From Isoetes taiwanensis (Eukaryota > Streptophyta > Lycopodiopsida > Isoetales > Isoetaceae), in NCBI GenBank assembly GCA_021234155.1, contig JAJEKV010000035.1:11780407-11844406 (forward strand): 64,000 bases of DNA. Reading direction: 5' to 3'. Below the pieces are notes generated by a model that worked only from the letters and a program-made list of their open reading frames with translations, did not search any database and was not told where the DNA came from. Positions within the stretch are counted from its first letter, which is position 1, and each line of letters starts with the position of its first letter. Of this stretch, positions 2,881 through 63,165 are shown in pieces. A program made the position numbers and the translations under genes.

Positions 2881-3686
2881 TGACTCTGTTAAAATAGTTA
2901 GAATCCTGAAAAATACTTTATTAAATCCAATTGCTCTATCGCTTCTAATTCACTTTAGAGATCCACAGGGGCATGTACCATTGAACCAGGTAACATTTAT
3001 AGCCTATCATTAGAAACCCACTATATCAGATTCCATACAATGACTTTAAAACATAAATTTCTGATAAACCAACTTCGAAGCAGCTACAAAAATGGCAATA
3101 TCCCCATATTAAAAATAGAGGATTGGATACTTGTTGATAACAGTCTTTTTAACTATGGAACTCGAGCTCTGGAATCATTTGCATGAAGAAGAAATTGCCT
3201 TGATTTGCAACTATTACCTGTGCCTAAGATATTATAGTGCTACAATAACATATGGCTGTATAGTAGTTCCTCAAGCTCCTGCTAATTTTTTACGGAGTTA
3301 TATGTATACATGCAGCCACTGACGGACCATGTCTAGCCACTGCCATGGCAACAATATGTGCAATATTTCGAAAAAGCAATATTGAAACTACAACATCTAT
3401 CGTACCCTTTGCATTCCCTGAAACCTATCATATTCATCAACTTCTAGAATGCTAGTAATATTCTTGATTGAGTGCAACAATGAGGCTTTAAAAACACATT
3501 TAAAAGTACCATTGCAACATCACACTCAGGCATTGAAGAGTATTTAGAAGTTTAAAATAACTTGCTCAATCACTTCCGACAATGTCTAGTAAGATTTGCT
3601 AGTCTTAAATCAAACTTGCATATAACATAAGAGTCACTGTATTTTCACAATCTTCAACAACATGAACTAATAGAAAACCCACAATT
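2881..3686. other. AT-rich stretch, nothing recognised
   Basis: No gene, RNA or repeat boundary was recognised between the LINE relic and the copia LTR. The frame at 3131-3322 has no recognisable motif. Confidence 0.4.
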
Positions 3687-4172
3687 TGGTCACTAATTTT
3701 CTATAGTTCATTCATGTCATTTGTCAATATAACCATTGAATCAATTCAAATTCATTGTACCAAAACTACTGTAGTTCAGGTATTGACCCAAACACTGTAG
3801 TTAGCATTGACCGGCTCATCTGCACACGAATTTCATCGTCTTCACTTCTCAATCGACCTATAATGCATTCGTCTAGCTTTGTTAAACAAATTCGTCTATA
3901 TATCTTGGGACGGCCGGCGGATTCGTGACCAGATAAGATTTCCACTTTGAGCTTTTATTATCTTCCATTTATCCCACAGATGTTAAGCCATCTCCAGTTA
4001 TTCGAACCATTGTCAACCTTTAATGATATTTCAATCAATATCCAATGCTTGTGTAACCAACATCCCAATATACTCATGAATATAATTTAAGTCCTTACAC
4101 ACTTGCTCAATAACTTATAGGTTTGCCTTCAAATATAGATCCTCACATGACTTATATGCTGATAATCCTTCA
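3687..4172 (-). repeat. Ty1/copia 3' LTR
   Basis: This 486-bp LTR starts TGAAGGATTATCAGC on the minus strand and ends in CA at 3687-3688. It is nearly identical to 5769-6311 apart from scattered substitutions and the 57-bp insert there. The first bases of the LTR supply the TGA that ends the polyprotein at 4170-4172. Confidence 0.85.
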
Positions 4173-5767
4173 CTCCTCCTTCAGCTTATAAGTCTGTACC
4201 TCTGCAACATTCAGTTCCCTTCTGAATTTTGTAAATTTAGTCTCTGGCAGGGCTTTGGTGAACACATCAGCTACCTGATCATTTGTATCAACATATGTCA
4301 TATGTATGAGTTTTTTCTCAGCTAAGTCTCGTATAAAATGCATGTTTAGCTCAATGTGCTTGGTTCTATCATGATATACCAGATTCTTAACGATTGCTAT
4401 ACAACTCTGACTGTCAGTCCAGATTTCTGTAGGTTCTTGTTGAGCACATCCTAATTCATTCAGTAACCTTCTCAACCACACTAATTCTTTGGCAACTAGA
4501 GAGGATGTAGCATATTCAGCTTCAGCTGAGCTCATTGCTACTGCTACTTGCTTTTTGCATCTCCAGGTTACCACACCTCCTCCTAAGAATATTGCTTAGC
4601 CAGAAGTTGATCTTCTAGTGTGCAGATCTCCTCCCCAATCTGCATCACTATAACACATCATAGTTAGATTTTCTGAGTCAAAGCAAATACCATGATTTTG
4701 AGTCCCCTTTAGATATTTAAGAACTCGTTTAGCTGCCTCCCAATGTTCTTTGGTAGCATCATGATTTCTTCTGCTCAAAATGTTGACTGCATAGGCTATG
4801 TCAGGTCGAGTACTGTTTGCCAAAAATAATAGACAACCAACCAGGTCTCTGTAAGGGACATTTTGCATTTCAGTAACCTCATCATTAGTAACATCATGTA
4901 CTTCTGTCAGTCTATGTCCAGCTATTATAGGAATCTTTGATGGTTTGGCTTCAGTTGCTTGAACCTTTTCAGCATATTTTTTACATGTGTGTACTTTGAT
5001 GTAACTTTATCCATTTCAACTCTCTGTTTCTGACAACCTCATTCCCAAGAAACTTCTTGAGCTCACCTACGTCTGACATTTGGAACCTGGATTTTAAAAT
5101 ACCTTTGCATATGTTCAAAATTTTCAAAGAGCTTGCAACCATGATACAATCATCTACATAAAGTGCAATAATGCAATATTCTCCATTTTGCTCAAACCTA
5201 TAAAGATTCCCATCATTTTGCAATTTTTCAAATCCTGTTCTTGCAAGAAATAATTCATACATAAGTACCATTCTCTTTGTGAGTATTTTAGCCCATATAC
5301 AGCCCTGTTAAGCTTCCAGACCATATCCTTACCATGTGAATGTCCTGGAGCCTGTTTCATATAAGCCTCCTCCTCAAGAGTAGCATTTAAAAATGCAGTT
5401 TTTACGTCCATATGGTGTAGCTCTAAATTCATAGCATTGGCCATAGCTAGCAAAACTCTAATGCTTGTAAGTTTGACTATAGGGAAGTAGGTTTCATCAT
5501 AATCTCTTCTTTTTTTCTGTGTATATCCTTGAGCAACCAATCTTGATTTAAACTTCTTACTTCCATCAGGGTTTAATTTAATTTTATACAGCCATTTACT
5601 TCCAATTATGTTCTGCTTACCATCAGACTTAACTAGCTCATACGTTTTGGTCTCTTCAAAAGATTTAAGCTCATCATTCATGGCAGCTATCCACTTATCC
5701 TTAATTACTTTGTTGAACTTCCTCAAAACTTTGGGGAATAACTTCATCCTCCAAAATAGCCATAATT
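4170..5767 (-). pseudogene. Copia pol relic: reverse transcriptase and RNase H
   Basis: These are the remains of the copia polyprotein, the reverse transcriptase and RNase H that copy element RNA into DNA. Order on the minus strand: EDEVIPQSFEE near 5745; WIAAMNDELKSFEETKTYEL and GSKWLYKIK in the fingers region; MDVKTAFLNATLEEE; the active site YVDDCIMVAS near 5140; then NSTRPDIAYAVNILSRR, SDADWGGD and MSSAEAEYAT of RNase H, ending KLKEE. There are frameshifts near 5720, 5160-5270 and 4870-4980. A stop at about 4594-4596 interrupts TSGYAIFL, where TAA replaces the Tyr codon. The pol stop codon is the first TGA of the 3' LTR. Confidence 0.85.
4173..4185 (-). promoter_or_regulatory. Polypurine tract of the copia element
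   Basis: The minus strand reads GCTGAAGGAGGAG directly in front of the LTR start. That is the position and composition of the polypurine primer for plus-strand DNA synthesis. It lies within the last codons of pol. Confidence 0.7.
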
Positions 5768-5768
5768 T

Positions 5769-6311
5769 TGGTCACTAATTTTCTATAGTTCATTCATGTC
5801 ATTTGTCAATATAACCATTGAATCAATTCAAATTCACTGTATCAAAACTACTGTAGTTCAGGTATTGACCCAAACACTGTAGCTAGCATTGACCGACTCA
5901 TCTGCACACGAATTTCATCGTCTTCACTTCTCAATCAACCTGTAATGCATTCGTTTAGCTTTGTTAAACAAATTCGTCTATATATCTTGGGACGGCCGGC
6001 GGTTTCGTGACCAGATAAGATTTCCACTTTGAGCTTTTCTTATCTTCCATTTATCCCACAGATGTTAAGCCATCTCCAGTTATTCGAACCATTGTCAAAC
6101 TTTAATGATATTTCAATCAATATCCAATGCTTGTGTAACCAACATCCCAACGTACTCATGAATATAATTTAAGTCCTTACACACTTGCTCAACAACTTAT
6201 AGGTTTGCCCATAGACCGATTGGTCTCCGTGGACGATAAAAGTACCTTCCTTCCTTCCTTCCTTCCTTCAAATATAGATCCTCACATGACTTATATGCTG
6301 ATAATCCTTCA
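5769..6311 (-). repeat. Ty1/copia 5' LTR carrying a 57-bp insertion
   Basis: This is the counterpart of 3687-4172. Its length of 543 bp is exactly 486 plus the 57-bp insert at 6210-6266, so no other net indel separates the two LTRs. A TATATA-containing segment near 5975-5985 may be promoter. It abuts pol sequence directly because of the internal deletion. Confidence 0.85.
6210..6266 (+). mobile_element. 57-bp LINE 3'-tail insertion
   Basis: The LTR copy at 4121-4140 reads GGTTTGCC then TTCAAATATAG without interruption. The copy here has 57 extra bases between those blocks. The insert holds CATAGACCGATTGGTCTCCG, then TGGACGATAAAAGTAC, then repeated CTTC. This is the terminal signature of the LINE fragments at 7881-7936 and 42538-42605, so it is an extremely 5'-truncated LINE insertion. 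Boundaries are ambiguous by a few bases because the target itself contains CCTTC. Confidence 0.8.
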
Positions 6312-7423: not shown

Positions 7424-7744
7424 TTGCCCATGAAAAGGCGCAGACTCATTGCCTCCATTCGCACAGGGGCACATCATCTTCGAATTGAGACGGGCAGATG
7501 GATTGGTGAGCCACGCCAGGACAGGCTTTGTCAATGCTGCCAAATGGAAGTCATTGAGGATGAATCTCATACCCTTCAAAGTTGCCCAGCATATGATCAA
7601 ATTCGGACGCGCTATGCTGAGTTGGTCAGGCCTGGCCAACCATTACATGTGACATTGAGCACAGCATCCGTACGGGTGCTGGGATCATACCTTCAGGAGG
7701 TTATGGACATGCGAGATCAGCTATGTCCTCGGGCACACACTTGA
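7424..7744 (+). pseudogene. LINE ORF2 C-terminus (Cys/His knuckle)
   Basis: The frame encodes LRIETGRWIGEPRQDRLCQC followed by a CxxC-x8-H-x4-C pattern, with DESHTLQSCPAYDQIR at its end. This pattern occurs after the reverse transcriptase in many LINE proteins and is thought to bind nucleic acid. The reverse transcriptase and endonuclease are absent, so it cannot act alone. The apparent start Met is internal to the original protein. Confidence 0.7.
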
Positions 7745-7795
7745 CATGTATATATACATTGATGTATACTTGTACAGTTTAACAGCATTCTTATT

Positions 7796-7858
7796 ACTGC
7801 CACGGTTTTTCCCTCGAAAACCCTTCGGGGCGGGGGTTTTTTAACCCGGACAGTAATA
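7796..7858 (+). repeat. LINE 3'-UTR hairpin
   Basis: CTTATTACTG near 7791 pairs with CAGTAATAAG at 7851-7860. Inside, CCCTCGAAAACCC and GGGGCGGGGG form further stem. The same arrangement recurs at 8783-8860, at 42455-42515 and, inverted, at 10845-10905. It was probably a recognition or termination structure in the LINE RNA. Confidence 0.6.
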
Positions 7859-7936
7859 AGTTTGCTGCGCTCCTTGTGGGTCCCATAGGCCGATTGGCCT
7901 CAGTGGACGATAAAACATCATTCTCATTCTCATTCT

Positions 7937-11194: not shown

Positions 11195-11336
11195 CATTTT
11201 GCAATTCTGGATAAAGAAATGTATTTTAAAATACACAAAGGTTTGCTTTTTTTTTTTTTCCCTCTCGCTATTCCGAAATACGAAGTGTATTCCAGAATAC
11301 ACAAAGGGTTTGATTTTTTTTGTCCCTTTAGCTATT
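11195..11336. repeat. Left half of a tandem array interrupted by T1
   Basis: About 67-bp units carrying GCTATTCCGAAATACGAAG, then TGTATTCCAGAATACACAAA, GGGTTTG and a T/C tract. It continues at 25124 on the far side of T1. Joining the two flanks through TATT restores a normal unit. Confidence 0.8.
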
Positions 11337-11366
11337 CGGTGTAAATATAGTAATGCTACCAAAAAA
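11337..11366 (+). repeat. T1 left terminal inverted repeat
   Basis: It reads CGGTGTAAATATAGTAATGC then TACCAAAAAA. The first base has apparently mutated from G. It matches the T2 end at 59054 and the inverted right end of T1 with a few mismatches. The following 100 bp also matches T2, including GACCTCGGGGGGTTGTTACT near 11430. Confidence 0.75.
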
Positions 11367-11461
11367 GCACCGTCCGCATAAGTGCTTTAGGTGCTCTAGG
11401 TGGTGCGCACTCGACGAACTTTCACTCAACGACCTCGGGGGGTTGTTACTCCAGAAATAGT

Positions 11462-14400
11462 ATGCATGTCTTCCCCCCCCCTCCCCCCCGGGCAAACTGT
11501 GAGAGTAATTCTCATGTTTGGCGGGATCTCTGGATGGCGGGATTCTGGAGAAAAAATTTCTTTCTTGGATTGTCATTCTTCTCAAGCTCCATTGTCGTGG
11601 CTGAGAATTCAGTGGCAATTGTCAATTCCAATTCTAACCCCAATCCCAATTCCAATTCTCCATTGTACCTTCATTTTACGGGCAATTCCGAAAGCACTGA
11701 TGATCACAATAGAAGAATTTACCTGGAATTCGAAGCCAGGAGAAAAAGAGAGTCGAGAAAGAGAATGAAACAAAGGGAGAAAGAAAACATTCTATTAAAT
11801 GAGAAGAAGAGAAGACAATAGCTCAGTGAAAGGAGATTGCATGAACTCTCAAAAGGGCTAGATTATTCTTTTAATCAAATTGTCAGGAATGTTTCTGAGG
11901 ATTTGGATAAAGGGAGAGTTCTTCAAAGACTTTTTAAGAAAAACAAACATTTGCCAATGCAAGCAGATGTACCAGATCCCAGAGGTATTGTTGTAATGAA
12001 AAGCATGATTGTGAATGTTAGAGAGACAATGCAAGCACCAAAAATGCAAAGAACAACTGATGTTCTGCAAGCAAGAAAGAGCACCCTTGAAATGGTAGCA
12101 TCTTCGACAGGAGGGATTAATCAATCTGCAATTTCAAGGGTTCTATCTGTTCCAAGAAAAACTATTGCCATGGCATTTAGAAGACGTATATTTCCAGAGT
12201 CTGAAGCCGGGCCTTGGTCAATATTTGGAAGGAAGAAAAGAAGTGATGCATTCTTACCTGAAGAAATAGCCACTGTGAGGAAGTTTTGGGATGAAAATAC
12301 TAGAGTTTCAACTTACAAGAAGTATGTGAGGAAGCATTTGACTGAAAATGGTGAGAAAATTGATTATCCTATTCATCTGCTAGAGATCACACAGGAAATA
12401 GTTTCAACCAAAAAATTACAAAGCTGTACACTAGTTCTTTACTTTGTGAGCTAACAACTACATTTGTGATTATCATTGTGTTCAGGTTCAATTGTACCTT
12501 GCTTTCAAAAAAGAACATCCTAATATAAAGATGTCTCAGCAGGCTTTTGAGAAACTGAAGCCAAGTTACGTAAGAAAACTTCAAGAAAGGGAGACTTATT
12601 GTTGCCAATAACACTTGCACCTAGAATTCGCAAGGCAGGCCATCAACAATGTCCTCATGGTGTTCATAGGGATTGTAACTGTAAGTGCAAAAGTTTGTGG
12701 ACCACGTCCAATCTGCATGGCTAAGGAGAGCACCATTAAATAAACAAGTGATTACTAGAGAATGGTAGTCTACCAAAAGGATGAGAGTGACAAGTGGTAT
12801 AAGCATCTTTGTCTGATGCAGACTTGTACAAAGCGTAGTATAAAGAAGTGAGTACATGGTTCCTTTATTTCAAATTTGATATTTTTCTTTCTATTTGATA
12901 CATTTGTTGTAATGTATATGGCAGATTGCCAACATGTCCTAAAGAGAGGAATAAGAAGAATACTTACAATGTGAATTGGAAAGTATTTGAAAAGGTAATG
13001 ATTTTTAAATTATATTGCAAAGTGCATTTAGTAACTTCAATAGGTATGTTTCTGAAATATGACTTACATATGATGAGCTGATCAATTGACCTAAACATGG
13101 CAGCAAGAAGTTCAAAGAAAGAATACATTGAAGCTATGTAAGAAACCTGCAAATGTTACAAGTCAGGTAGTCCTTATGAGTTTAACGAGCATGCTACAAA
13201 GACTAGAAAGCGTTTGTGCCACATAATTATAGAGCTCATTGGCAAGCCAAGGAATTTAGGAAATGCTTGGCAACACTTCAAGATAATACCATTATTTCTG
13301 TTATAGATTTTGCTGAAAATTATGCATTTAAGATCCAACAGGAAGCTCAATCCTGTCATTGGCATACTGACCAGGTGTCAATTTTAGTGCATGTAACTTA
13401 TAGGAGGATAAAGAAAGAAGAAGAAAGAAAAAAGAAAGAGGAAGAGAGCATCTGCAAGAAGAAAAAGGACTCAGCCAAAGAGAAAAGGAAACAAACTCTC
13501 AAAGGTATTGTAAAGAAAACATATTTCTATATTAGTGATGACAATTGCATGCTGATTGACTTCAAAGTATTGGAGTTGAATATGAAAAACATGTATTTTG
13601 GAGTGATGGATGTTTTGCACAATTCAAGTCTTCTAGACCAGGGATAGGTTCTATACGTACAAAATTAAAATTCCTGACGTATAAAGTCAAAAAATACGTA
13701 TTTTTTAATAAAATACGTATTTAACGTATAAAAACCTCGCCGGCCGGAAAAATTTCACAGACGCCAAAGCTTCGTGAAAAGCGACGCCGAAATTTTTTTT
13801 CACGCCGGCAAAGAAAAAAAGGCACGCCGAAAAAATTTTTTTTTTTTTTTTTTTTTGTCTGTAAACCTTCCGCTTAGCCGTCGCTGAAAAAAACTTTCAC
13901 AGACGCCAAATGTAAGGTTTCACAGACGCTTAAATTTGAATTTAAAAAATATATATATATATTATATATATATATATATTATATATATATATATTTTTTT
14001 TTTTTTGAAGCCAACAGACGCCGAACCTTCCGCTTTTTACGACGCTGAAAAACCTTTCGCGACGCTGAAACAAGGTTTTCGCAGACGCCGAATTTGAATT
14101 TCAAAAAATATATATATATATTTTTTCGCAGACGCTGATTTTCAATCTGCTTTCACGCTGGGCTAAAAACTTCGACAGACTGGATTAGAAGGTTTCACAG
14201 ACGCCGAAAATCTTCCGACGCCGAAATTTTTTTGCAGTATTTTTTTACGCTTTATACCAAGAAATATGTGCCGTATCATACAATTCATAATGTGATTCGT
14301 GATAAAAGCGTCTGCCAGTATTGAACCTATCCCTGTTCTAGACCGTTCCACTTTCCTGGGAGGTTTTATGGGAAAATGGGAAAGGATCTTCTATGGAATT

Positions 14401-15346
14401 GTTTTTGCTAGTTCACATGGCAAAGGTGAGCATGATGATGCTGGAGCAATTATAAAGAGGATACTAACTCAAGAGCAAATGAAGTATAATGGTTGGAAAC
14501 TGCATGCGCAAAGGAGGTGGTTGCTTTTCTCCAATGGTACTTTGAAAATCATCCATCTGACAATAACATCAAAAGGTAACTCTGCAGTTTTCTTGCCTGT
14601 GCTGAATTTAGGTTAAAGCACTTAAAGCTCTTAAAGCACTTACATTTCATACTGTTACAGGTATTTCTGGGAGGTAAAGTCTTCAAAGATAGATAGATCG
14701 GAGAGAATTGAATGTCATACTTTAAAGGGAACAACAAAAATCCAATGCATAAGGCCATGTGACAAGGAGAACTCTTTGAAGGTAGCTTACAGAACTTTGT
14801 CTTGCTTTTGCAACTACTGCATTCAATTTAAGTGGGATAAATGCATCAGTATGAGTCGAATTGATGGTTGGAAAAATAGTAAATTGAGGTTGAAGGATCC
14901 TAAGATTGCAGGTATTAGCAATGATTTGCAAGAAGATGTCGAGTTTGATGGTGAGGAAGAAGAAGCGGAGGAACATCATCTAATGACTTCTATGATAGAA
15001 GTGGGTGACAATTTTGATGTAAATGCTGAAAGAAGGGAATGAAGAAGGGGTATACTTTTATGTACTCAAATGCACTGAAGCAAAAAATACTTTGTTGGAA
15101 AACTATAAAGATGGATGGGAAAATGTTTTCGGAGTCGAAGAAGTTATTTTGACAGGACATTATTACAAACAAATTGATGGTGGTCTAAGATTTCAACTAT
15201 TGCAGAACAAACCAGTGGCCAGTGTACATAGCCATCTTGTTAGACTTTCTAAATTTGGCATGATTGCAGATGCAGATGGCTCAAACTTGTATATCATGGC
15301 AGAAGACACTTGCCAGCAGATCATTAGTCTTCCACCTGCTTCATAG
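11462..15346 (+). pseudogene. T1 gene A: DDD/E-type transposase-like protein, broken
   Basis: This is probably the transposase that cuts and joins T1 ends in the nucleus. Segments in order: a basic charged N-terminus (near 11700-11821); KGLDYSFNQIVRNVSEDL and a stretch ending IHLLEITQ; LYLAFKKEHPNIKMS and FEKLKPSYVRKLQERETYCC; YRAHWQAKEF then VIDFAENY (13310); YFYISDDN (13530); WSDGCFAQFKSSR (13600-13638); SSHGKGEHDDAGAIIKR (14410-14460); RTLSCFCNYC (14795); and a C-terminal segment ending 15346. The Asp in DFAENY, the Asp in SDGC and the acidic residues of HGKGEHD are candidate catalytic residues. I know this motif set from uncharacterised proteins in plants and animals. Damage: TAG at 11819-11821, several frameshifts, a lost splice donor near 12397 and a hAT MITE at 13639. 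A clean intron lies at 14576-14660. The start is uncertain. Confidence 0.65.
13639..14335. mobile_element. Non-autonomous hAT element (MITE), 697 bp
   Basis: Perfect 13-bp terminal inverted repeats CAGGGATAGGTTC / GAACCTATCCCTG are flanked by the 8-bp duplication TTCTAGAC (13631-13638 and 14336-14343). A CAGGG start and 8-bp duplication are hallmarks of hAT elements. The interior has no coding capacity. It holds repeated ACGTAT motifs near one end, many CAGACGCCGAA-like motifs that may be subterminal transposase sites, and (AT)n at 13950-13995. It splits the SDGC motif region of gene A from the HGKGEHD region. Confidence 0.9.
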
Positions 15347-16001
15347 AAGGTAATTGTACAACAATCTGTTTAAAAGAGTAAGACACACAAAATTGAACAT
15401 CCCACATATCTGCTATCTTGCAATGAACTCAATATGGAAATCTCAATATGTTTTAACTCAATATATTGGCAGCTGCGATATATTCTAAGTATCTGACAAA
15501 CTTGAAGCTAGAAAGTGCACATTCTGCAATACACATATCTGCAATGTTTAAAAGAGCAAGACACACAAACTTGAGCATCCCATATATCTTTATCTTGAGA
15601 CCTGCAATGTCTTTAAAGTATTGGACAAAGTTGAAGCAAGAAATAACAAAATAACAAGATAATAAGAGAACAAAATTGAGGTATATCTGCACTCGTATAT
15701 AAAAAGTTTCACAAAATTGAGCTCTCAGCATCTATTCAAAGTTTTCACAAAATTGAGGTCTTAGCCCCTATGTCAAAGTTTTCACAAAATTGAGGCCTCA
15801 GGCTCTGTGCCAAATTTTTCACAAAATTGAGGTCTCAGCCTCTATGTCAGATTTTGCCTCAATCCAAAATCAAGGCATATACATGTATGTACAAGAAGTA
15901 TTCTTCTAGGCAATAGTCAGATATTTCTTCATCTGCTCCAACTAATCAACACTGAAATGTTTACCAAAACCATCCACTAACCATTTAATTTGACCCTTGC
16001 A
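15347..16001. repeat. Convergent intergenic region of T1 with tandem repeats
   Basis: This lies between the 3' ends of genes A and B. Four imperfect copies of a roughly 44-bp unit containing TTTTCACAAAATTGAGG and a CTCAGCCTCTATG-like block lie at about 15705-15855. A weaker duplication lies at 15440-15640. No gene was seen. The region could carry the two poly(A) sites. Confidence 0.65.
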
Positions 16002-18837
16002 TTAGGCTTTGACTAATATTTTTTTCTCCTCACCAATTTGATGCTGGAAAAGTGCATCCAGAACACCTAGGGATGTTCTTGTAAAAGCCTCTACCCTAGA
16101 ATTTCTCTTCAAGATACCAAAAAGGTCTTCAACCTATGCAACTTGTCTAATTATTGGAAGCAAGTAAGAATTCAGAATGTCATCAGTAGGATCACTCATA
16201 AAAGTAGGCACCATGATGGATGTGAATGATGGGGACATGTAAGTCTTGTACACTTCATCAGCTGCAAGAACCATATTGTTTCCATACTGTGGAAAAGCTT
16301 CATACACCTTATGAAGTGGCTTCATGAATACTAGATTTGCAGATTCCAGTGGCCATTTGAAAGGCATCTTTTCGCAATACTTCTGGTCCCAAACGAAGAC
16401 AAGATTACCTTTGGTAATAGGACAGACAACATCAAGAACTTCTGCAACATTGAATGCATTCATGGAGGACCAAATTGCAAGGTCGAAGGTTCTGGAGGCT
16501 TCCTAGAAAAATGTGTGAACACCTGGCGTCAACACAACCAATGTGTTAGTGGTTGATGATCTCAATAATTGAGTGCTAAGCCGTCTTAGGTCTTCTCTAT
16601 ATTGATTGGTTCTTCTATAACTCTTTACCAGCACGATATTGAGATCTAGTATCAACAACTTCTTTTTCATAGGTAAAACTTGTATATCAGAACACCTAAT
16701 AAGTTAAATAACATACAATTCAGTGAATAATTCAAGAAAAGAGTACAATTGAAATATAGGAGTAATAATCTCGAAGTTACATTGCTGAGTTGCAAATCAG
16801 TTACAATTGTACTTTGTAACTCGGTAGACTTTATGTTCAGACAATTAATTAAGTGAATACAGGATCAAAGGTCCACAGAAACTTTAATTCAAATTAAACC
16901 TGGAAGTTAAATTAAAAACAGTTAAGTCCTCATCAAATGGGACTACTTTGTCAATCCTTGAACATTAAAATATCATTTATGAATTAGTGCTCACAAAGAA
17001 ATGTTTGAATTTCCTCTACGAGCTTCCATAATTTCAGCAAAATTACTATTTGTACCTTCATTGTGTACAGATTTTGCTGCAGCATTATCCTCTTGTTCAA
17101 AACCTGTATCTGCACCACTGGGATCTATATTTGCAATATCTTCAAGGGTGGACCTTATATTCTCCATAATAGTCTTCTCAATACCCTCTTCTTCCCCTTC
17201 TTCGTTCAGATCTATGTGCACTTTCCTTCTCAATGGATACTTTCTAGTTTCTCCAAAAAAAATTCTTGTTCTGTTCCTTTTTTTTTTTTCTAGTCACAAC
17301 TTCTTTCACTTTGGTCTTGCTACTGCCCTTCGCTTTCTTCTTCTCAACTAAATCTTCCTTCTTTGGCATATCCTGCTTTTGTTTCTTCCTGTTTGGAGTG
17401 TCCAAGACACATTCAACCTTACTCTCATTAAGACCTGTCTCTGAAACATTTGCCTTCTCATCCCCAATTTTACCAGTGCCTTGGGCTAAACATCTTAGAT
17501 TGATCACCTAACTCTGCAAGATCTGACTCAAAATCAGCATCATCCGTTCCATGTCTGAGCCTCCTCTTTCTGCTAGTAGAAGGGGGACTCAACTGCTCAA
17601 ACAGAACATCTATTGGCTCAACATCAGATCAAGCTATCTTTGATCCCAAATCAGGCCAAATCAGATCGAGCTATCTTTTATCCCACATCAGGCCGAGCTG
17701 TCTTTGATTCCACATCAGATTTCTTATTAGTTAATTTAGGATCAAAAGAAGCAATCTCCTCTATTCCTGTTGGAGTACTCATACCAAGTTCAACATAAAG
17801 GTCTTCAGGAATATGACAGTCACATTTCAAACATCTCCCTTCCTTCAACAATGCAGCACACATCACATGATGATATTCATGTTCACAATCAAGAAGTATG
17901 GACATCTTGTATTTATCATGAAAACTTAAACCACAAGCACTTTGCAAAAAACCTGGTAGCCTTCTTTTGATGTTGTTGATGCAGAAAGGAGAGTTGATCA
18001 CCTGCCTCAGAGTTTCAAGGTGGCTCACATGTTCTTTTGCTGCATTTATCTTAGAATCATTTTCATTTATTTGAGCTTCCAATGACTTTTTCTTCACAAC
18101 CATAAGTGGATCTCTAGGTTTGCAACTCCAAAGGTTCACATGCATACTCTTCAAACATCAATTGTTTTTTTAAGTCTGTGATTTCTAACTCCAATTCCTT
18201 TATACTGATCAAAGCTCTCTTCTCGACAATACTAGACTTTAGCTTTTCCATATTACTTCTTTTTTCAGACAACCTTTTGAAAAGCTTATCATTTGATAAA
18301 TCTTCAGCAGCCAGGCTAACAACAATATCTTGCATTTCCTTTCCCATCTCTGCCTTTTTTTTTATCTCAAGCTTCTTTAAGTTTTCTGTCACTAAATCCA
18401 GATTATGCTTCAAATTGGTCTGATCTAGAATAGGCTTAGGAATTTCTTTTGCAGAAATATCTGGTTTGGTATCAATTTCAGCTTTTGTTTTTTGTTCCTT
18501 TTTTCTCGGCCTGCATTTCTTGTACATCATAACCTGTGCGCCAAATGAAGCCCAATTTATCTTATGACCTTCGAGATCGAGAAATTTTTCAGGGTAATTT
18601 TTCCAAACAAAGACATAAGCAACCTGTTTTCTTACTTCATTGTTACAAACGCCATCTGGGTAAAACACTCTCAATAAGCTTTCCAATTTTTTTTTTTGAA
18701 GAACTGTGTCAGCAATATATTAAAAGAATGATAATGTTACAAAGCAAGTGAGGAGGAAGGAGAACTGCCCCAAAGAGAGACAAAGGATACCTCGACACTC
18801 CACAACAATCGCAACTCTATCATTGCATAAACCGCCA

Positions 18838-21800
18838 TCACCATCTACCACACCCAAGAAGTCCCGCCAAATGGAAAACTTCCGCTCTACTAATCCCGAA
18901 CACCAAAAAGCTTTGAAATAGCTTGTACCGAAGTCGAGGAATCGAGAGAGGCAGCAGTCTTTCAATCCCCCGAAGATCCACAACCGCCGCTTCCAAATCA
19001 ACCACACCAACCAAGCCACGCACAGATGCAAGGCTTGTCTGCCGCACGAGCGGCCAAGCACCGTGATATACATGAAGCGAAGAATTGTTGGCTATTCAAT
19101 CTCACCTCGAAACAGAGCCCCCGACCCAATCCCGTGCAACCCGCAAGTGAGGGCATAAAACCGCATAATGCTCCACGCCTCAATGGCGATGAAGGCCACA
19201 ACAAGGGCAAAGAGGGCTCACACCCCGCCTAAACTCCACTCACAAGGACATTCACCCTCGACATACCCGGTGCACCACCGGCCACGTATAACCGAACCCT
19301 TCGGTGGGGAAGTGAGCTCCATGTCCACGCCCAAACCGAGCGCCATCGAGAACCCTGAAGCCGCAGAGACCACTTGCCTGGGGGCGAGTGTCATGAATAG
19401 CCAACACCCCAGAACAAGACCGCACAAAACAAGAAGATACAACATCCGGATGAACCTTCCAAACCTCGCACCACCACATCACCCCGAGGGACTATAGGTA
19501 TGTGTAGCTTAATACTCCCCGCCACTTGTTCCCGTGATAGCCCTGGGCCATCGCCCTTCAGCGAAAGCGAGCTCGAAGAACTCCCACGGCTAGCTGACCA
19601 TCCCAATACCAATCCTCCAAGGTGAGCACAGCAGGGCTTCCAACGGGCCGCAAGGCCCGAGCATGCACAAGGCGCAGCCTAAGGGCAAGTACGCAGGGGT
19701 AGAGGAACCCACAGAAAAGGAGAAGAGTGGTGATAAACCGAGGCATAATCTAGCCGAAAGAGCACACGACGCGATCCCAAGCCCGCAACACCCCCCCGTG
19801 GAGAAAAGGGGATGCATGTGGGAAAGGCCGGAGACCATACAACAAAGCCTGTGGCAACTCTACATGCAATGCATTTACTTTCCAAATGCCACACAATGGC
19901 GAAGAGATTGCCACAATAGTGCCGCACTGTGAGAAGATGCTCCATCCTGCGTAATGCTCCAAATAAACTTAGAGACCAACACCTTACTATGCAGTGCCAA
20001 ATCCAGAATGGCCAAGCCCCCATCCTCCCGGGGGCGGAGACACTTCCACCAAGCCACTTTAACAACCGCCCCTTCATCATCCCCCCCCCCACACAAAATT
20101 TCAACAATCTTATCCAAAGCCCGATCTTACCCTCGAGCTAACATCGCAGATGTCAGATACACATGAGTGCTACAAAGTACTGACTTGGCAATAGTGATCC
20201 TACCTGCCATGGACAACTTGCTACCCTTCCACCAATTGAGGTGTTTCTGCAACCCCTGCAAAATCTCATCCCACACCCTCCCCATGGAAACATCCCCTCC
20301 AAAGGGAATACCCAAATGCCTTAGTACACACATTACCCGAAGCACCTTCCAAGGGAATAGAGCCAAACAAGGGGAGGCGGAGTCAATCGGGCCCATAATG
20401 CGGAGCATTTGCCCCAATTCGAAAGAATGCCCGAGGCCAAGGAGAAAGTATCCAAAGAAACCCTTCACATTCCGCAAAATTCCTCTTCTTCTCGCCACCA
20501 AGAAGAGAAAAGTGTCATCGGGCGAATCGGTTAATAATCACGACTACCATCCCCGCATCCGCCCATCCACCACCCCTCCTCCACCGCAGCCAAAAACAAT
20601 CGAGACAAAGGCCTCCGCCACAATCAGAACAAAATGGTGCCAAAGGGCACCCCCGACGCACTCTCCTCGCCTAAGGACAAAAAGGCGAGGGTTCACCTCG
20701 CACACCACCGTAGTCTGCGGCCGACCTATGCAGCTTCATGATCGTTTCTCAGAAAGCGTGGACCACAGCCCAACGCTAACATCATGGCGCATAAGAACTC
20801 CCAACGGACACTATCATAAGCTTTGGCAAAGTCAAGCTTAAGATAGGCAATGCCTTGACTGCTCTCTCCGGCCCAATAAAGGCCCTCATAAGTCATGCAA
20901 CATTAGTCAAAATGTTCCTCCCAGAACAAACCCAGATCGCACCTTACTAATGGAAGAAGTCAACACCGGCTTCAACTTCTACCGTGGCTTTTAGCAAATA
21001 ATCTTGTACACAGAGGACAACAAGGATATAGGCCTCCAATCATTAATAGTAGAAGGTCGCTTAACCTTAGGAATCAAGGAAATGCATGCGGTATTCAAGA
21101 TCCTATCCATGTGAGAAGACTGCAAAGAACTCAAGATACACCTGGTACACGACTCACCAGCCCACTCCCAATAAGTCCGAAAGAACTCCACAGGATGCCA
21201 TCCAGCCCAGACATTTATCCTTGGCCATGCACATACATGCCTCCGCTTAAATCCTCTCGAGAGCTCCTCGCCCAAGCTCTCACGCTTGGTGAGGTAAAAA
21301 TAGATGGCTTAATGTACCCCCAAAACAAGCTCCCGATCTCCTGCTCATAGGGAAGAGTGCGCGCTAAAAAACCCTCGAAAATGAGCATGCACATACCTCT
21401 CGCAACTCAGCGGATCCTCCAAAGTCCGCCATCGTGCAAAGCAAGGGACGCCATAGATGTCGTGATATCGCCACGCTTCCTAGGCTGCTCAAGAACACCG
21501 ACGAACTTGTATCCCCCTCCTTCAACCAGGTAAGGGCTGCCTTCACACGCCGCCATGCACTTTAACCTGCTCCAAAGCAACAATACGCCGCAACACCGCA
21601 TTCTCCCCCTAATGCCATCGAAGGTCATACCAATCATCTCCAACTCCCCGATAAAGACTATGCAACCTCGCCGCCTCCTCGCCGCACACGCCGCCTACCA
21701 AAGACCTTAGCAAAACGCTTCACCCTCGCCAACGCAGCCACCATACCGCATATACCCTTCGTGAGATGAAAAGGTATCAAGCCACAACTCCCCGCACCGG

Positions 21801-22480
21801 GCGAGAAATCCGATCGCCTGTGGCCGGGTGTTCAAACGGAACACCGGCCGAGAAGGCCGAGAGGCAACCGCACTCGACCGACAAAACCGAGGGTAATGAT
21901 CAGAAATGGAGGTAGACAGAATGTTACTCCGGGCGCGAAAGAGGGCACACCATCCAATGCGCGATGGGGAAGCATAGCACCGGCCATGCCTAGCATACGC
22001 CTACCACTAAACCGCCCATTACAATAGGTGAAAGACAAGTCCCCTGTGGACCTCAACCAAGGCCAAATCCTCGCAACAAACGACCACCGGTCCCTCTCAA
22101 ATCCCTCGCACAAGCCGGGTGCGCAACTGTGAGCGATCTTCTACTCGCCTACCATATTGAAATCCCCTAACAACAACCAAGCAACCTCGCAACCCACCAA
22201 GGGCTCGCAGAACTTATTCCGGATCAGGCCCACAAAGCACCCCCTGAGAGAAGGTCGATTAGGGCATAAACATTAACAATCCCCCACTCTTGCCCGCCCT
22301 CCAACCACTTAATTATTGCCCACCGACCAAACCTGTCTGCTGCAGAGTATGTGACCTGCACATCCATCTTCCAAGCAATAAGAGTACCCCCACTAGTCCG
22401 CCCAGAAGAAGAAGCAATAAAGCCAAACTGCCTACCAACCATATTCATGAGCTCGGACATATCACCCTATGACACTTATG
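18838..22480 (-). pseudogene. LINE1 ORF2 relic: endonuclease and reverse transcriptase
   Basis: This is the polyprotein that nicks target DNA and reverse-transcribes LINE RNA at the nick. Pieces on the minus strand: an endonuclease with SGRTSGGTLIAWKMDV and WGIVNVYA (22440-22280) and LLLGDFNMV near 22160; reverse transcriptase with LIPKVKRPSTINDWRPISLL (21080) and SSVYKII; DTFLFLVARRRGILRN where YADD is expected (20510); SMAGRITIAKSVLCSTHVYL (20220); and a Trp-rich C-terminus (about 18840-19250). Numerous stops and frameshifts are present. LINE2 lets the order be checked. Confidence 0.8.
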
Positions 22481-22599
22481 CTCCCCGAATGCAAATAATA
22501 TCGACGCGAAATCGCCAAGTGCTAAAGAAATACGGCCCTCTTACTACTAGAGGACCGCACTTCCCATTATTCCAACCGAGGATCGACCTATTCATCCTG

Positions 22600-24580
22600 T
22601 GAGGAGAAGTGTCCAGCCCCACATGCCTACCCACTGTGCCATCAGCCCACTCCACGAGTCAGATCTAGAGCCAGAGGATTAATCACAGCAATGTGACCCA
22701 CAGCCGCTCTACGTGATATTCCACTTCCAACACGTGTTGGAAGTCCCCCAGGCACCTCCACAGAGTCATGGGCCACAACTCGTGATATTCCACTTCCAAC
22801 ACGTGTTGGAAGTCCCCCAGGCACCTCCATAGAGTCATGGGCCACACTAGTCTCTACCTCCAACCGGGTTGCGCCAGCCACCTCATGCTCAGCACATACC
22901 GCTATTTTGGGACATCCCCAAAGCAGATCACCACCCCCACAACCCCTGTCCCTCGTGATCTAGCCACAACCAAATCATCCGAGCCCCCCCTCGAGCCACC
23001 ACGCCCCTAGCCCCGCCATCAGCATGGCCCAAAGAAGCCCGCCTCGGCCCCACACCACCTCTCCCAACCACACCACCTCATCCAACGCCACTTCATCGCA
23101 CCACACGGAGTCCTCGCCTGTGACCTCGTGAACCGAGGAATCCCGCCCCTCGATCAACACCGCAACCCCTACCACATCACAAGCACCAAATAGGACTAGC
23201 AGGATCATCAACAGTGGTCAAATGGTAGCACAATAGATGGAAACATCCGCCGGATCTCGTGAGCCATTTAAAAGCTTCAATCGAAAAGAAAAATGCCAGG
23301 GACCACTACGCGACTGAAGAGAAGTAGGCACAGCCGCAGCAGCAGTAGAGCAACACAGATCTTGGGGACCCGCATACAATAGAATGAGCCAAATATACAC
23401 CCAGCCATTGGCCATAGAAACCAAGAAATCAGTGCACCATCAGTCGAGGAAGATCCTCAACTGAACCAACACGGATTTTAACCACTGCCAAAGAACTGGT
23501 GGACATTGCTGGAGTATAATACTCGATACAACACATATGAATCACCCAACGATCCACCCCCGACTAACCAATTGCCGCATTTAAGACTCAGCCTCAAACA
23601 TGATTAGGGAAGAAATTATTTGGTAAGAATTTCGTAGACCGACACCGGCAAACCAATCCGCCTCGATGTCCAAAGAAGCCAAGAGCTAAACCTCCTCGTG
23701 GTCCAATACGAACCCGTGAAATAGCCCAACACCGCAAAATGAAACTAGATTCTCAATGGTCCGAACATGCCCGGTATGATCAATATCTATCCATGGAGTC
23801 TCCGGAAGAGCCGCCGCAAGTCAACAGAGTGATGATCCTCCACAAACTTCGTGGCTTTTGAACACGGCAGCTTCTACACTCGAGCCTTGCGCTTTAATCC
23901 AATCTGAAAACCCCGCCGAAAGTGATGCGAGCAACAAAGTGTCATTGTTCCGCCAGTGCCGGGCGCAGATTTTAGGGCTGCCGCCTGCACCCCCCGAGAG
24001 GTATCCAGAGGCACCCCAGAGACACATCAGCTACATGCACCCTAGAAGAGGGCGATCACCGAAAGTGATCCCTTCCCAAGCACAAAGGGCAGGGCATCAC
24101 GCATCCGGGGCCTCCAAAGGGGCATGCTTGATGGAATCAAGACCGAGTCTCCAAAACACAATCTACTTGGGTCTCAGAATTATATTGAGAGGAAGAGCAA
24201 TCCACATACCTCTCAACCGGAGGGGATTCCAAGAGCTCCCTCATCTCCTACCAATTGCATGCCACTTCCCTACAGCCCGCGCCTCTTCATGCATGCCGAG
24301 ACCAGCCCCTTCCCCTTTACTTGGAGGATTCTTTCTCCTCGCCATCTCCCTTGGCTTCAGCCCCAAGCCATGAGGCTCAATCGAGCCCCCATCACTGTCT
24401 GGCAGGGGAGCCATGTCATCCGGACCAGTCCGGAAATCAGCTGTTTGCAGCAACAAATCACATGCAAAACAGCTGATGCTATACACCGCTGGAAAGAGCT
24501 CAGAGCAAGCTTTCCAACGAGCCCAAGCACGCCAAAATCCGACACCAGATCCTTTTCCTAGTTTTTTGAGGCAGACCAGA
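22600..24580 (-). pseudogene. LINE1 ORF1 relic
   Basis: This is the probable RNA-binding ORF1 region, broken into short frames. Recognisable pieces are MAPLPDSDGGSIEPHGLGLK near 24410 and a Gly/Val/Pro-rich C-terminal part with a duplicated 23-residue unit. I could not place a DUF4283 core with confidence, so the ORF1 role comes from position 5' of the endonuclease. GC content is much higher than in flanking T1 sequence. Confidence 0.5.
22712..22849. repeat. 69-bp in-frame tandem duplication with 20-bp palindrome
   Basis: Two adjacent 69-bp copies start at 22712 and 22781. Each holds the perfect palindrome CTTCCAACACGTGTTGGAAG (22724-22743 and 22793-22812). On the minus strand the unit encodes 23 residues with EVPGGLPTRVGSGISR, so the repeat keeps the reading frame. 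Confidence 0.9.
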
Positions 24581-24597
24581 TTGATCCAACTTTAGGC

Positions 24598-24651
24598 GAT
24601 CTTGAGCTCAAGACATAATTATTCTAGGGCTAGTGCGTTACCACTGAGCCA
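24598..24651 (-). promoter_or_regulatory. tRNA-like A and B boxes at the 5' end of LINE1
   Basis: The minus strand reads TGGCTCAGTGG (24641-24651) and, 32 bases further on, AGCTCAAGATC (24598-24608). These resemble the A and B boxes of a polymerase III promoter and sit at the very first bases of the element. The spacing and intervening sequence resemble the head of the SINE at 49596-49648. The tRNA-like character is inferred by eye. Confidence 0.5.
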
Positions 24652-25093
24652 AATTTCCAATTTTTCCCTCAAATGTGGTTGAACAAAATGAACTATGATT
24701 GCAAACTTTGAGTTGAAAGGTTCCTGGCAAATGGAGTCCCATTGTTCCTTTGTAACTTGACTTGCTAGCCAATTGTACTTCAAATGGGGTTGCAGACCCT
24801 CGTTTGACAAACCATGCATCTCAACAAAATCCTCCACTGTTACTGCCTCTTCTACCATTTTTGCTTGATTGAAGAATATCAGTTCTGGATAAACGATCTA
24901 TATTGTGGGCAGGCAAAGGTTTTAGGAATTGGGATACTCTGCTATAGAAAAGTAGATAAAATTTGGGATGTTGAATGATTGAGGAGAAGCTCTACGTGGG
25001 GGAACCGAGGTCGAGATAGTACGATGAATTAATTATGGGTGGTCATGTTTTTGCTCGACCACAAGTGCTTAAGGTGCTGAGTGCTTTCGCGCT

Positions 25094-25123
25094 ATTTTGA
25101 GTAGCATTGCCATATTTACACCC
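25094..25123 (-). repeat. T1 right terminal inverted repeat
   Basis: The minus strand reads GGGTGTAAATATGGCAATGC then TACTCAAAAT, followed inward by GCGAAAGCACTCAGCACC. It aligns with the right end of T2 (60739-60768, minus strand). Confidence 0.75.
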
Positions 25124-25310
25124 TATTCCAGAATAGGAAGTGTATTCTGGAATACGCAAAGGGTTTGCTTCTTTTTTTTCCCCTTTTGCTATTCCGAAAT
25201 ACGAAGTGTATTCCAGAATACACAAAGGGTTTGCTTTTTTTTTTTTCCCTTTCGCTATTCCGAAATACGAAGTATATTCCAAAATACAAAAAGAATTTCA
25301 TTTGTTCGAG
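25124..25310. repeat. Right half of the tandem array interrupted by T1
   Basis: This is the continuation of the array at 11195-11336: TATTCCAGAATAGGAAG, then units ATTCCGAAATACGAAGTGTA separated by GGGTTTGCTT and T-rich tracts. The 197-residue plus-strand frame across this stretch is mainly repeat-encoded and is not supported as a gene. Confidence 0.8.
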
Positions 25311-41884: not shown

Positions 41885-44842
41885 ATTTAACTGAGTTCTT
41901 CAATCCCTATGAGTCCCATCATCTTTAAATTGGCCTCAAACTTTGGCTTTTCAAGAGCTTTTGTCATCATGTCTGCTGCCATTTCGTTGGACAGTACCTG
42001 AGAGTGAGTGATCCTTGTGATACAATGTGTCGAATAAAATGATATTTAACGAGGCCCGCAATGCTACCTGCGTACCCACTTGCCCATGAAAAGGCGCAGA
42101 CTCATTGCCTCCATTCGCACAGGGGCACATCATCTTCGAATTGAGACGGGCAGATGGATTGGTGAGCCACGCCAGGACAGGCTCTGTCAATGCTGCCAAA
42201 TGGGAGTCATTGAGGATTAATCTCATACCCTTCAAAGTTGCCCAGCATATGATCAAATTCGGACGCGCTATACTGAGTTGGTCAGGCCTGGCCAGCCATT
42301 ACATGTGACATTGAGCACAACATCCGTACGGGTGCTGGGATCATACCTTCAGGAGGTTATGGACATGCGAGATCAGCTATGTCCTCGGGCACACACTTGA
42401 CATGTATATATACATTGATGTATACTTGTACAGTTTGACAGCATTCTTATTACTGCCACGGTTTTTCCCTCGAAAACCCTTCGGGGCGGGGGTTCTTTAA
42501 CCTAGACAGTAATAAGTTTGCTGCGCTCCTTGTGGGTCCCATAGGCCGATTGGCCTCAGTGGACGATAAAAAATTATTCTCATTCTCATTCTCATTCTCA
42601 TTCTCTTATGATCACATGGACCATTGGCAATTTGGATTAAGTCAAAAAGATATTTTTCTTGATGCAAATATAGGGAGCCTAGGTCTTGATCATATTGAAT
42701 TGCAATGCCTAGAAAGTGGTGAATTGACCCAAGGTCTTTCATACGAAATTGCTGATGTAGCTGCAACTTAAGAGTGTTAAGATCAGATTCAGAGGTTGAG
42801 GCAATGACCAAATCATCAACATAGCATAGGATGAACAAAGGACTAGGATGTAAACGAAAATAAACACTAGGATCTAAAGCACTCGTTTAAAAATTCAGAG
42901 ATAAGAGAGTAGCGTTTAGTTTGGAGTACCGGGTTCGAGAGGCTTGGCATAATCCATACAAAGCTTTGTGTAATATGCACACTAGATTGATTCCCTCTTC
43001 AAAACCTGTAGGTTGTTGAAGATATAACTCTTCCTGCAGATCTCCATGCAAAAAAGCATTAGTGACATTCATTTGATGAATAAATTTTTTTTTCTGACAA
43101 GCATATGCCAGAAGTGTTTTGATTGAAGGCATCCCCACAACTGGTGCAAATGTTCTGTCGAAGTCAATTCCTAGCACCTGTGTAAAGTCTCTTGCTACAA
43201 GATAAGCTTTATATCTTCAATAGTTCCATTGCTCCTATACTTGACTTTGTATACCCACCTGGATCAAATAATAGTCCTGTCAACTAGCTTGGAACTAAAA
43301 TCCAAGTTCCTGCTTCTCGAATAAATCTCAATTCTGTGCGCATAGCTTCCTCCTAGTGTGGTTTGGCCAGGCAATTCATGGCTTCTTGATATGTATCAGG
43401 TTCAGTCCAGGAACATGTTCTTCAGCACGCATAACATAGTCTTGCAAATAGTAGGAAGTTTTCGAGTGCGTGTAGGTCGAGAGACAGCAATAGGTGTTTC
43501 AAAGGTGGAGGGATGAGGAAGATAAGGCTCGTGGTGATCTGAGGAGATTGATGAAAAGGTAACTAAATCAGAGATGGTATGATTTGCAATAAGAGAGGGA
43601 AGTGGAGATGGTATGGAAGTGGAAGGTGATAGCATATAAAGAGGAAGAGATGGTAAAGGATTTTCTTCAGGTAGGATTATAAAAGTGGAAATTTCAGTAG
43701 GTAATAAGGGAAAACAAGGTTCATATTCATTAAATTGTGCATGACAGATAATGATCAATTTATTGGTGTCCAAGTCAACAAATCTGAAGGCCTTTCTGTT
43801 GGAACAGTATCCAATGAACACACACTGATTGGTCAAAACTTCCATCTTTGGAATAGATTTTGGCATACGAACAAAAGCTTTGCATCTAAAGTTTTTTAAT
43901 TATTTTAAAAGAATAGCCTTACCTGTTCACAAAACTTTAGGGATCTGGAATTTGAGACTTGAATGTGGAGCTTGATTTATCAGGTAGCTGTAAGGATTGC
44001 TTCTCCCCAGAATTTAGCAGATACATGCATGGCTATAAGGAGACTCCTTGCCATTTCAATGGGTGTCTTGTTGACTCTCTCAGCCGAATCATTTTGCTCG
44101 GATGTTGCAGGTGCACTTAGTTGATGTTCAATGCCATGGTGCATGCAGAACCCTTCAAAAATACTTGAACAAAACTCCCCTCTATTATCCGACCTCAGAC
44201 TTAATATGTGATCTCCAGTAGACTTCTCAACAAAAGTTTTGAAATGTTGAAAATATTCAAAAGCCCGACCTTTGATTTTGAGCAGATAGACAAATAATTT
44301 CCTCGAGAAATCATCCAAGAAGACTAAGAAATACTGTGCACCTGCAGATGTTGGTGCCTTGATGGGACCACAAAAGGTCTGTATGAATCAAAGCAAGTCT
44401 CTTAGTGGCATGGGAATCAGATGCTCCAAAGTGTGCTCTAGTGGCCTAGGTTTGGAGACAAATATTGCATGGAGCATGTTGCTTTTTGGTTGCCTTGATA
44501 AATTTCCTGTCCATCAGAACATTGATCTTTTTGAAAGCATTATATCTCAGCCTATAATGCCACAGAGTGTTTGCATTAGGTGGTTCTGAAGCAAACTTTG
44601 GCATGCTCAAACTTGGCAATCCCTTGGATTCTATAAAGGTTTCCAACTCATATAGCACCAAAAAGATGATGATCATTCTTAACAATATTAAAAGCTCTAT
44701 TTGAAAACTTTACCTTCAAACCAGCATCTGTGAGTTTTGAAACAAAGATCAAATTCTTCGAAATGCCTGGAACATGCAATACCCCTGGAATAGCTTTGAT
44801 AGAATTCCTGATCATAATGCTGACTGTAACAAACACCACAGA
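41885..44842 (-). pseudogene. Copia polyprotein relic (integrase, RT, RNase H)
   Basis: Recognisable pieces on the minus strand: IPGVLHVPGISKNLIFVSKL; LWHYRLRYNAFKKINVL (pre-integrase); MDDFSRKLFVYLLK, LRSDNRGEFCSSIFEGFC and HQLSAPATSEQNDSAERVN (integrase D and E region); VFIGYCSNRKAFRFVD; MNVTNAFLHGDLQEELYLQQ, YVDDLVIAS and FRMKDLGSIHHFLGI (reverse transcriptase); and YHFIRHIVSQGSL then MTKALEKPKFEANLKMMGL at the RNase H end. About 190 residues expected between LFDLIQIAN and YHFIRHI are absent, and the LINE fragment occupies that place. Frameshifts are frequent. Confidence 0.85.
42080..42605 (+). mobile_element. LINE 3' fragment inside copia, (CATTCT)n tail
   Basis: It is nearly identical to 7424-7936: the same 5' start (TTGCCCATGAAAAGGCGCAG), the same broken C-terminal frame, the same hairpin (42455-42515) and terminal block CATAGGCCGATTGGCCTCAG, but a longer CATTCT tail (42575-42604). 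It lies antisense to the copia coding strand. Confidence 0.85.
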
Positions 44843-63155: not shown

Positions 63156-63165
63156 GGGAAAATGC

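What the first reader, a model, noticed from the sequence alone, without database searches (positions are those of the whole stretch)
11337..25123. A 7-kb DNA transposon (T1) carrying a transposase-like gene and a convergent FCP1-phosphatase-like gene
Seen: related inverted ends at 11337 and 25123, a TATT duplication, a tandem array restored across the ends, and two convergent broken genes filling the interior once the nested hAT MITE and LINE are removed. Known: a 4-bp duplication with a DDD-type transposase is described for Sola elements. Inference: gene B travels as a second element gene. I know of no plant DNA transposon with a coiled-coil/RING-like/FCP1 partner.
Basis: partly seen in the sequence, partly recalled or inferred. 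Interest (0 to 1): 0.9.

Follow-up and report, generated by a model that had tools for sequence, protein, structure and literature searches.

The report
Two-gene plant transposon with phosphatase-like gene
In a quillwort-like plant genome, a large family of jumping DNA carries both its own cutting enzyme and a second gene that resembles phosphatases acting on RNA polymerase II, and both genes appear to have been kept working by selection while the family spread.

Summary
T1 spans 11337-25123 between TATT duplications; joining the flanks restores a 65-66-bp tandem array. A hAT-like MITE and a LINE are later insertions, leaving about 7.1 kb. The window's own 1.658-Gb assembly was searched (its size matches Isoetes taiwanensis).

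Of 20 loci fetched by the left end alone, 8 have a recognisable right end. All 8 show a 4-bp duplication and carry gene A with gene B convergent to it. Genome-wide, 65 of 150 listed A hits have a listed B hit convergent and downstream within 15 kb, against 0.35 expected; of the 20 best A hits, 18 do.

A has a predicted RNase H fold with three invariant Asp (DDD) and no Pfam family. B ends in an FCP1/NIF domain (79.9 bits, cut-off 21.8). Both are under purifying selection between subfamilies (dN/dS 0.21-0.46; 0.55-3.36 in shifted frames). One copy pair is mosaic, with the break just after A's end.

So B is a real second element gene. What it does is inferred: its domain has Asn where these phosphatases usually have their second Asp. 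Sola membership could not be tested by sequence.

The parts
11333..11336 (.). left target-site duplication TATT
   Evidence: sequence; restored empty site
25124..25127 (.). right target-site duplication TATT
   Evidence: sequence; restored empty site
11337..11366 (+). left terminal inverted repeat (first base C here, G in the other copies read)
   Evidence: inverted repeat I7; 40 scored matches genome-wide; other copies
25094..25123 (-). right terminal inverted repeat
   Evidence: inverted repeat I7; other copies
11597..15346 (+). gene A, broken DDD transposase gene with introns; catalytic exon from about 13207 to 14578, split by the MITE
   Evidence: exons by similarity to L019; family alignment and fold
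15987..24858 (-). gene B, broken, convergent with A, interrupted by the LINE; N-terminal exon 24654-24858 and then 18691 downwards
   Evidence: similarity to L019 and L026 B exons; FCP1 hit with three stops
15987..16682 (-). FCP1/NIF-like domain of B (reads DLNI here, DLNG in L019)
   Evidence: PF03031; genome hit G000:C1040:11796393-11797088; fold
17822..17935 (-). Cys/His cluster of B, RING- or PHD-like by eye
   Evidence: pattern in the window and in L019 and L021; best Pfam match below its cut-off
13639..14335 (.). nested hAT-like MITE with 8-bp duplications TTCTAGAC (not part of T1's original body)
18692..24653 (-). nested LINE with approximately 12-bp duplication (not part of T1's original body)

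Best explanation
T1 is a dead copy of a two-gene DNA transposon family of a lycophyte genome. Gene A encodes a DDD transposase that acts on roughly 30-bp GGGTGTAAATATGG ends and leaves 4-bp duplications (ends, duplications, predicted fold and invariant Asp are shown; cut-and-paste catalysis is inferred). Gene B, convergent with A, encodes a coiled-coil-like and zinc-like protein ending in an FCP1/NIF domain. It has stayed beside A, under purifying selection, through deep divergence of the family, so it is a working part of the element and not a passenger. How B helps is inferred. Its domain belongs to a DLNG group in which the usual second catalytic Asp is Asn, so I think it more likely a phospho-protein-binding adaptor than an efficient phosphatase. 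It may tether or license the transposition complex through a phosphorylated host protein such as the RNA polymerase II tail, or shield the element's transcription. My odds for B's role: adaptor about 0.3, active phosphatase about 0.2, the rest open. The confidence given below is for the two-gene-element part.
For: 8 of 8 right-end-complete copies have 4-bp duplications and both genes. Linkage: 65 of 150 listed A hits, with B about 1.7 kb away at the median; random placement mean 0.35, maximum 2 in 500; 18 of the 20 best A hits. A deep branch with the A catalytic exon only 58% identical also has B. dN/dS: A 0.30 (0.22-0.38) in two pairs, B N-terminal part 0.27-0.39, B FCP1 domain 0.21-0.30, with shifted-frame controls mostly near 1 or above. 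DDD and RNase H fold. NIF domain.
Against: 85 of 150 listed A hits and 86 of 150 listed B hits have no partner in the cut-off lists, and 6 of 20 left-end loci show no B within about 10 kb. Between the closest copies dN/dS is up to 1.3 for A and about 0.4-0.6 for B, as expected of decaying copies. For L026-L028, A gives 0.46 against 0.55 and 0.89 in shifted frames, a weak contrast. No transcript, protein or transposition data. The DLNG motif argues against ordinary phosphatase catalysis, but the adaptor role has no direct evidence.
Confidence: 0.9

Rival explanations
1. B is a passenger: a host FCP1-like gene or fragment captured by the transposon and amplified with it, as Pack-MULEs do with host genes.
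For: Angiosperm host genes hold the same DLNG-type FCP1 domain. A non-autonomous element with the same ends and no A or B similarity exists in the window, so these ends can carry other DNA.
Against: Purifying selection on both halves of B; B beside A from the closest to deep subfamilies in one fixed arrangement; no database protein like B outside the FCP1 domain, and that at 26-35% identity only.
Confidence: 0.06
2. A and B belong to two unrelated mobile elements, one nested in the other and then spread together by chance or segmental duplication.
For: In the pair L026-L028 the A half and B half have different histories.
Against: Copies sit at different sites with different duplications; the spacing of A and B is narrow, median 1668 bp, and convergent in 65 of 66 pairs.
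Confidence: 0.03
3. B acts as a true phosphatase on a host protein, and the DLNG group is catalytically active.
For: The FCP1 domain is the most constrained part of B (0.21-0.30) and keeps the nucleophile Asp, the WSS motif and, in L019, the ADD motif.
Against: The second catalytic Asp is Asn in B and nearly all aligned relatives; in SCP1 this residue is needed (recalled; mutants of it appear among the structures listed).
Confidence: 0.2
4. B is mainly a DNA- or protein-binding accessory (end binding, anti-silencing, assembly) whose FCP1 domain is only a scaffold.
For: The N-terminal part is also constrained, 0.27-0.39, and looks coiled-coil and zinc-rich; MuDR has a second convergent gene, mudrB, of unclear function (recalled).
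Against: Stronger constraint on the FCP1 domain than on the rest.
Confidence: 0.3

Closest known systems
Sola superfamily of DNA transposons
   Same: 4-bp duplications, DDD transposase, size of several kb, short inverted ends (passages of PMC10741241)
   Different: No sequence link tested; duplications here are not the AT-rich AWWT type given for Sola2 elements; carries an FCP1 partner
Sola2-Fanzor1 chimeric elements of Dictyostelium and Polysphondylium (passages of PMC3627910)
   Same: Transposase half shared between elements whose other half differs; a second gene in the element
   Different: Second gene is Fanzor1, not an FCP1-like gene; there the 3' halves of different families are unrelated, here they are homologous B genes
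KolobokP composite-like transposons (abstract and outline of PMC9587614)
   Same: DDD/E transposase plus a second, enzyme-like protein in one element
   Different: His-Me nuclease and long terminal direct repeats instead of an FCP1 domain and short inverted ends
MuDR of maize (recalled)
   Same: Two convergent genes, the second of unclear function
   Different: Unrelated ends, duplication length and second protein
FCP1/SCP/NIF phosphatases (PF03031)
   Same: Domain and predicted fold
   Different: DLNG in place of DLD; fused to a coiled-coil-like and zinc-like N-terminal half; carried by a transposon

Membership tests
Sola superfamily (gene A / the element) | 4-bp target-site duplications | tested here: met
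   8 of 8 right-end-complete copies plus the window copy and the non-autonomous copy
Sola superfamily (gene A / the element) | DDD-type transposase | tested here: met
   D222, D305, D346 invariant in 38 aligned relatives of 71 found; RNase H-like order in the model
Sola superfamily (gene A / the element) | sequence similarity to Sola1, Sola2 or Sola3 transposases | not testable with these tools
   no reference Sola sequence held; the 2009 founding paper is not in the library
Sola2 group | AT-rich AWWT-like duplications (PMC3627910, passages) | tested here: not met
   ACAG, CAAA, AGTA, CTCA, CATG, TTTG among the 8 copies
Retroviral-integrase / DDE RNase H fold (gene A) | RNase H core in the predicted structure | tested here: met
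FCP1/NIF family PF03031 (gene B) | score above the curated cut-off | tested here: met
   79.9 bits against 21.8 for copy L019; the window's broken pieces alone reach 19.2 and 12.9
FCP1/NIF family PF03031 (gene B) | DxD catalytic motif of the active phosphatases | tested here: not met
   DLNG in L019 and L049, DLNI in the window
RING or PHD zinc finger (N-terminal half of B) | score above a curated zinc-finger cut-off | tested here: inconclusive
   best match Prok-RING_1, 17.4 bits, cut-off 29.1; one expected Cys is not seen by eye

The most novel reading that the evidence does not exclude
A large, deeply branched transposon family that depends on its own FCP1-like phospho-protein reader or phosphatase, so that its movement is coupled to RNA polymerase II phosphorylation, with the transposase and FCP1 halves exchanged as modules between subfamilies but kept together.
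Probability: 0.3. Interest if true: 0.85.

Novelty: new variant of a known kind. Interest (0 to 1): 0.62.

Why it matters
Second genes of DNA transposons are often of unknown use. Here selection shows that one is needed, and its domain points to a testable link between transposition and host protein phosphorylation, perhaps of RNA polymerase II. The searches made of the held open-access library (transposon, FCP1, phosphatase and accessory; DNA transposon and haloacid dehalogenase; FCP1 homology domain and transposon) listed no paper on such an element. In one search none of the 13 listed papers contains FCP1; none of the 15 listed of 458 contains haloacid dehalogenase; one search found one paper, on Trichomonas introns by its title. 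Subscription journals and Repbase could not be searched.

Tried and rejected
Passenger capture and chance nesting of A and B were tested and are disfavoured.

Apparent counter-example: five of the 20 A-selected loci (L031, L032, L045-L047) have sequence after A that does not align to the B-bearing copies. The first 951 bp read downstream of the L046 copy held no B. The next 900 bp showed B's C-terminal part, 64% identical and convergent, behind an extra stretch of about 1 kb. The later genome-wide list also places B beside L031, L045 and L046. L032 and L047 remain without a listed B.

Nothing found: A relatives in IMG/VR (27 pattern matches, none confirmed) and in phage records; Rfam families in the window at gathering scores; NCBIfam for two A pieces. 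Full-length B gave 9 proteins, matching over 14-20% of the query and each bearing the FCP1 domain. In the tree of A, the Isoetes row falls with Klebsormidium, Cryptomeria and unnamed rows (100/100), apart from the animal rows; it is midpoint-rooted with long branches. In the tree of the FCP1 domain, the two B rows (99/99) have weak placement outside the angiosperm clade. Foldseek against the PDB gave only weak matches for A.
Full report
Where it is. The window lies in a held assembly of 1,658,258,908 bases in 1110 contigs. The published Isoetes taiwanensis assembly is 1658.30 Mb in 204 scaffolds plus 909 contigs (PMC8566536; one section and passages read). The species name is my inference from this match.

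Anatomy. T1 runs from 11337 to 25123. TATT stands on both sides, and joining the flanks restores a continuous tandem array of 65-66 bp units, 4.4 copies. The inverted arms are 28 nt at 86%. A hAT-like MITE with TTCTAGAC duplications and a LINE with an approximately 12-bp duplication sit inside. In the 8 right-end-complete copies the LINE is missing at its site, and so is the MITE in 7; L025 has lost that site. About 7.1 kb remain. A second element with the same ends, duplication TAAA and no A or B similarity inside lies at 59054-60768.

Other copies. The first 100 bp gave 40 scored matches of 294 first-look candidates. The 20 best after the window itself were fetched as stretches of about 10 kb. 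The right end was recognisable (at most 7 mismatches in 33) in 8: L013, L018, L019, L021, L022, L025, L026, L028; in the other 12 the best was 14 or 15 mismatches. All 8 have a 4-bp duplication: CATG, ACAG, CAAA, AGTA, CTCA, TATA, TATT, TTTG (L013's was read from the print, and L025 lacks its last base). Their lengths are 4.6-7.4 kb. All 8 contain A and, in opposite orientation, B; L025 has lost most of A, and L018 the FCP1 exon. Of the other 12, six show parts of B (L010, L016, L017, L023, L024, L027; rearranged in L016) and six show none within the stretch (L009, L011, L012, L014, L015, L020). For L020 a 98% B hit lies about 1.6 kb beyond the stretch.

Genome-wide linkage. The window's A catalytic exon gave 150 scored hits of 6966 candidates, and the L019 FCP1 exon gave 150 of 5343; candidates are not copy counts. 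Of the 150 A hits, 66 have a listed B hit within 15 kb. In 65 B is downstream and convergent, 934-8903 bp away, median 1668; in 1 the arrangement differs. Random placement, with contig lengths only approximated, gave mean 0.35 and maximum 2 in 500 trials. Linked A hits by identity to the window's A: 31 of 41 at 80% or more, 18 of 41 at 70-79, 14 of 44 at 60-69, 2 of 24 at 50-59. Distinct B hits linked: 64 of 150, among them 16 of 47 at 40-49% identity. Of the 20 best A hits, window included, 18 have B. Both lists are cut off, so unlinked hits are expected: the place of L013 is unlinked in the list but carries B, and L049, a branch with the A catalytic exon 58% identical to L019, has KKLVILDLNGVLV and IWSSM of B convergent downstream (E 3e-9; best of 200 shuffles 0.027).

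Gene B. B has an N-terminal half with coiled-coil-like stretches (by eye) and a Cys/His cluster that passes no Pfam cut-off. Its C-terminal part is an FCP1/NIF domain: PF03031 79.9 bits in L019, cut-off 21.8. The model of the window's domain, one broken exon read through (pLDDT 85.7), matches Scp1, CTDNEP1, UBLCP1, Tim50 and Fcp1 (best E 9.4e-12). Database relatives number 9 and 16 in two searches, at 26-35% identity, and each carries the FCP1 domain. The first motif is DLNG; Asn at that position is nearly invariant (90% or more) in the 22 aligned rows, with P0090 (DLDE) and P0088 (DLYG) as exceptions. That the second Asp matters in SCP1 is recalled. In a 23-row tree the two B rows stand on a long branch of weak placement outside the angiosperm clade.

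Selection. From, pairs L019-L026, L019-L028 and L026-L028. A: 0.30 (95% bootstrap 0.22-0.38), 0.30 (0.22-0.38), 0.46 (0.31-0.75). B N-terminal part: 0.39 (0.29-0.54), 0.27 (0.19-0.38), 0.38 (0.25-0.55). B FCP1 domain: 0.25 (0.17-0.37), 0.30 (0.19-0.45), 0.21 (0.13-0.32). The same bases in shifted frames give 0.55-3.36, most near 1 or above; the weakest contrast is A of L026-L028. Across all pairs the closest copies give higher values: up to 1.32 for A within L018-L022, and 0.43-0.63 for B within L018-L025. The window against L013 gives A 0.56 and B 0.65, as decay after insertion would. So both proteins were needed while the lineages spread.

Modules. In 400-bp windows L026 and L028 are 91-98% identical over the first 3.2 kb and 69-83% beyond. 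In 50-bp windows identity falls from 90% to 48% at 3450, just after A's similarity ends at 3429. So the two halves can be exchanged between related elements. A pattern of like 5' and unlike 3' parts is reported for Sola2-Fanzor elements (passages of PMC3627910).

Mechanism. Shown: a mobile family with defined ends and duplications, and two linked, constrained genes with recognisable domains. Inferred: A cuts and pastes; B assists. The altered catalytic motif together with strong constraint on the domain favours a phospho-protein reader over an efficient phosphatase; the RNA polymerase II tail is a guess from the family's known substrates.

Verdict. The Sola assignment is plausible but untested by sequence. 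This is a new variant of a known kind: a two-gene DNA transposon with a second gene of a sort that my searches did not find described.

Noticed in passing
window 59054-60768: A second element with the same ends, duplication TAAA, 1.7 kb, no A or B similarity, with internal diverged repeats around 59660-60190: a non-autonomous relative of T1.
   Followed up: partly
window 18680-20866 and 60982-63161: Two copies of the same LINE 3' part, 89% identical, in opposite orientation.
   Followed up: no
L050 and L051 (C919:7163150-7165000), before B: An extra stretch of about 1 kb between A and B in the L046 copy, with plus-strand open frames of 151 and 114 aa and no Pfam match; shared start with L032 and L047. 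Perhaps a third gene or another insert.
   Followed up: partly
P0001 residues about 495-600: The C-terminal part of A relatives holds a beta-rich domain (GDNFAV...VDFY...HLVRAxKF) that looked BAH-like by eye; not folded or searched alone.
   Followed up: no
L019 element coordinates about 4460-4800: Inside the intron region of B of L019, an open frame reads like an LTR-retrotransposon aspartic protease (DGGSAVNLI...), probably a later insert; judged by eye.
   Followed up: no
window 7424-7936 and 42080-42592; 3685-4127 and 5767-6209: Other nearly identical repeat pairs in the window, 97-98%.
   Followed up: no
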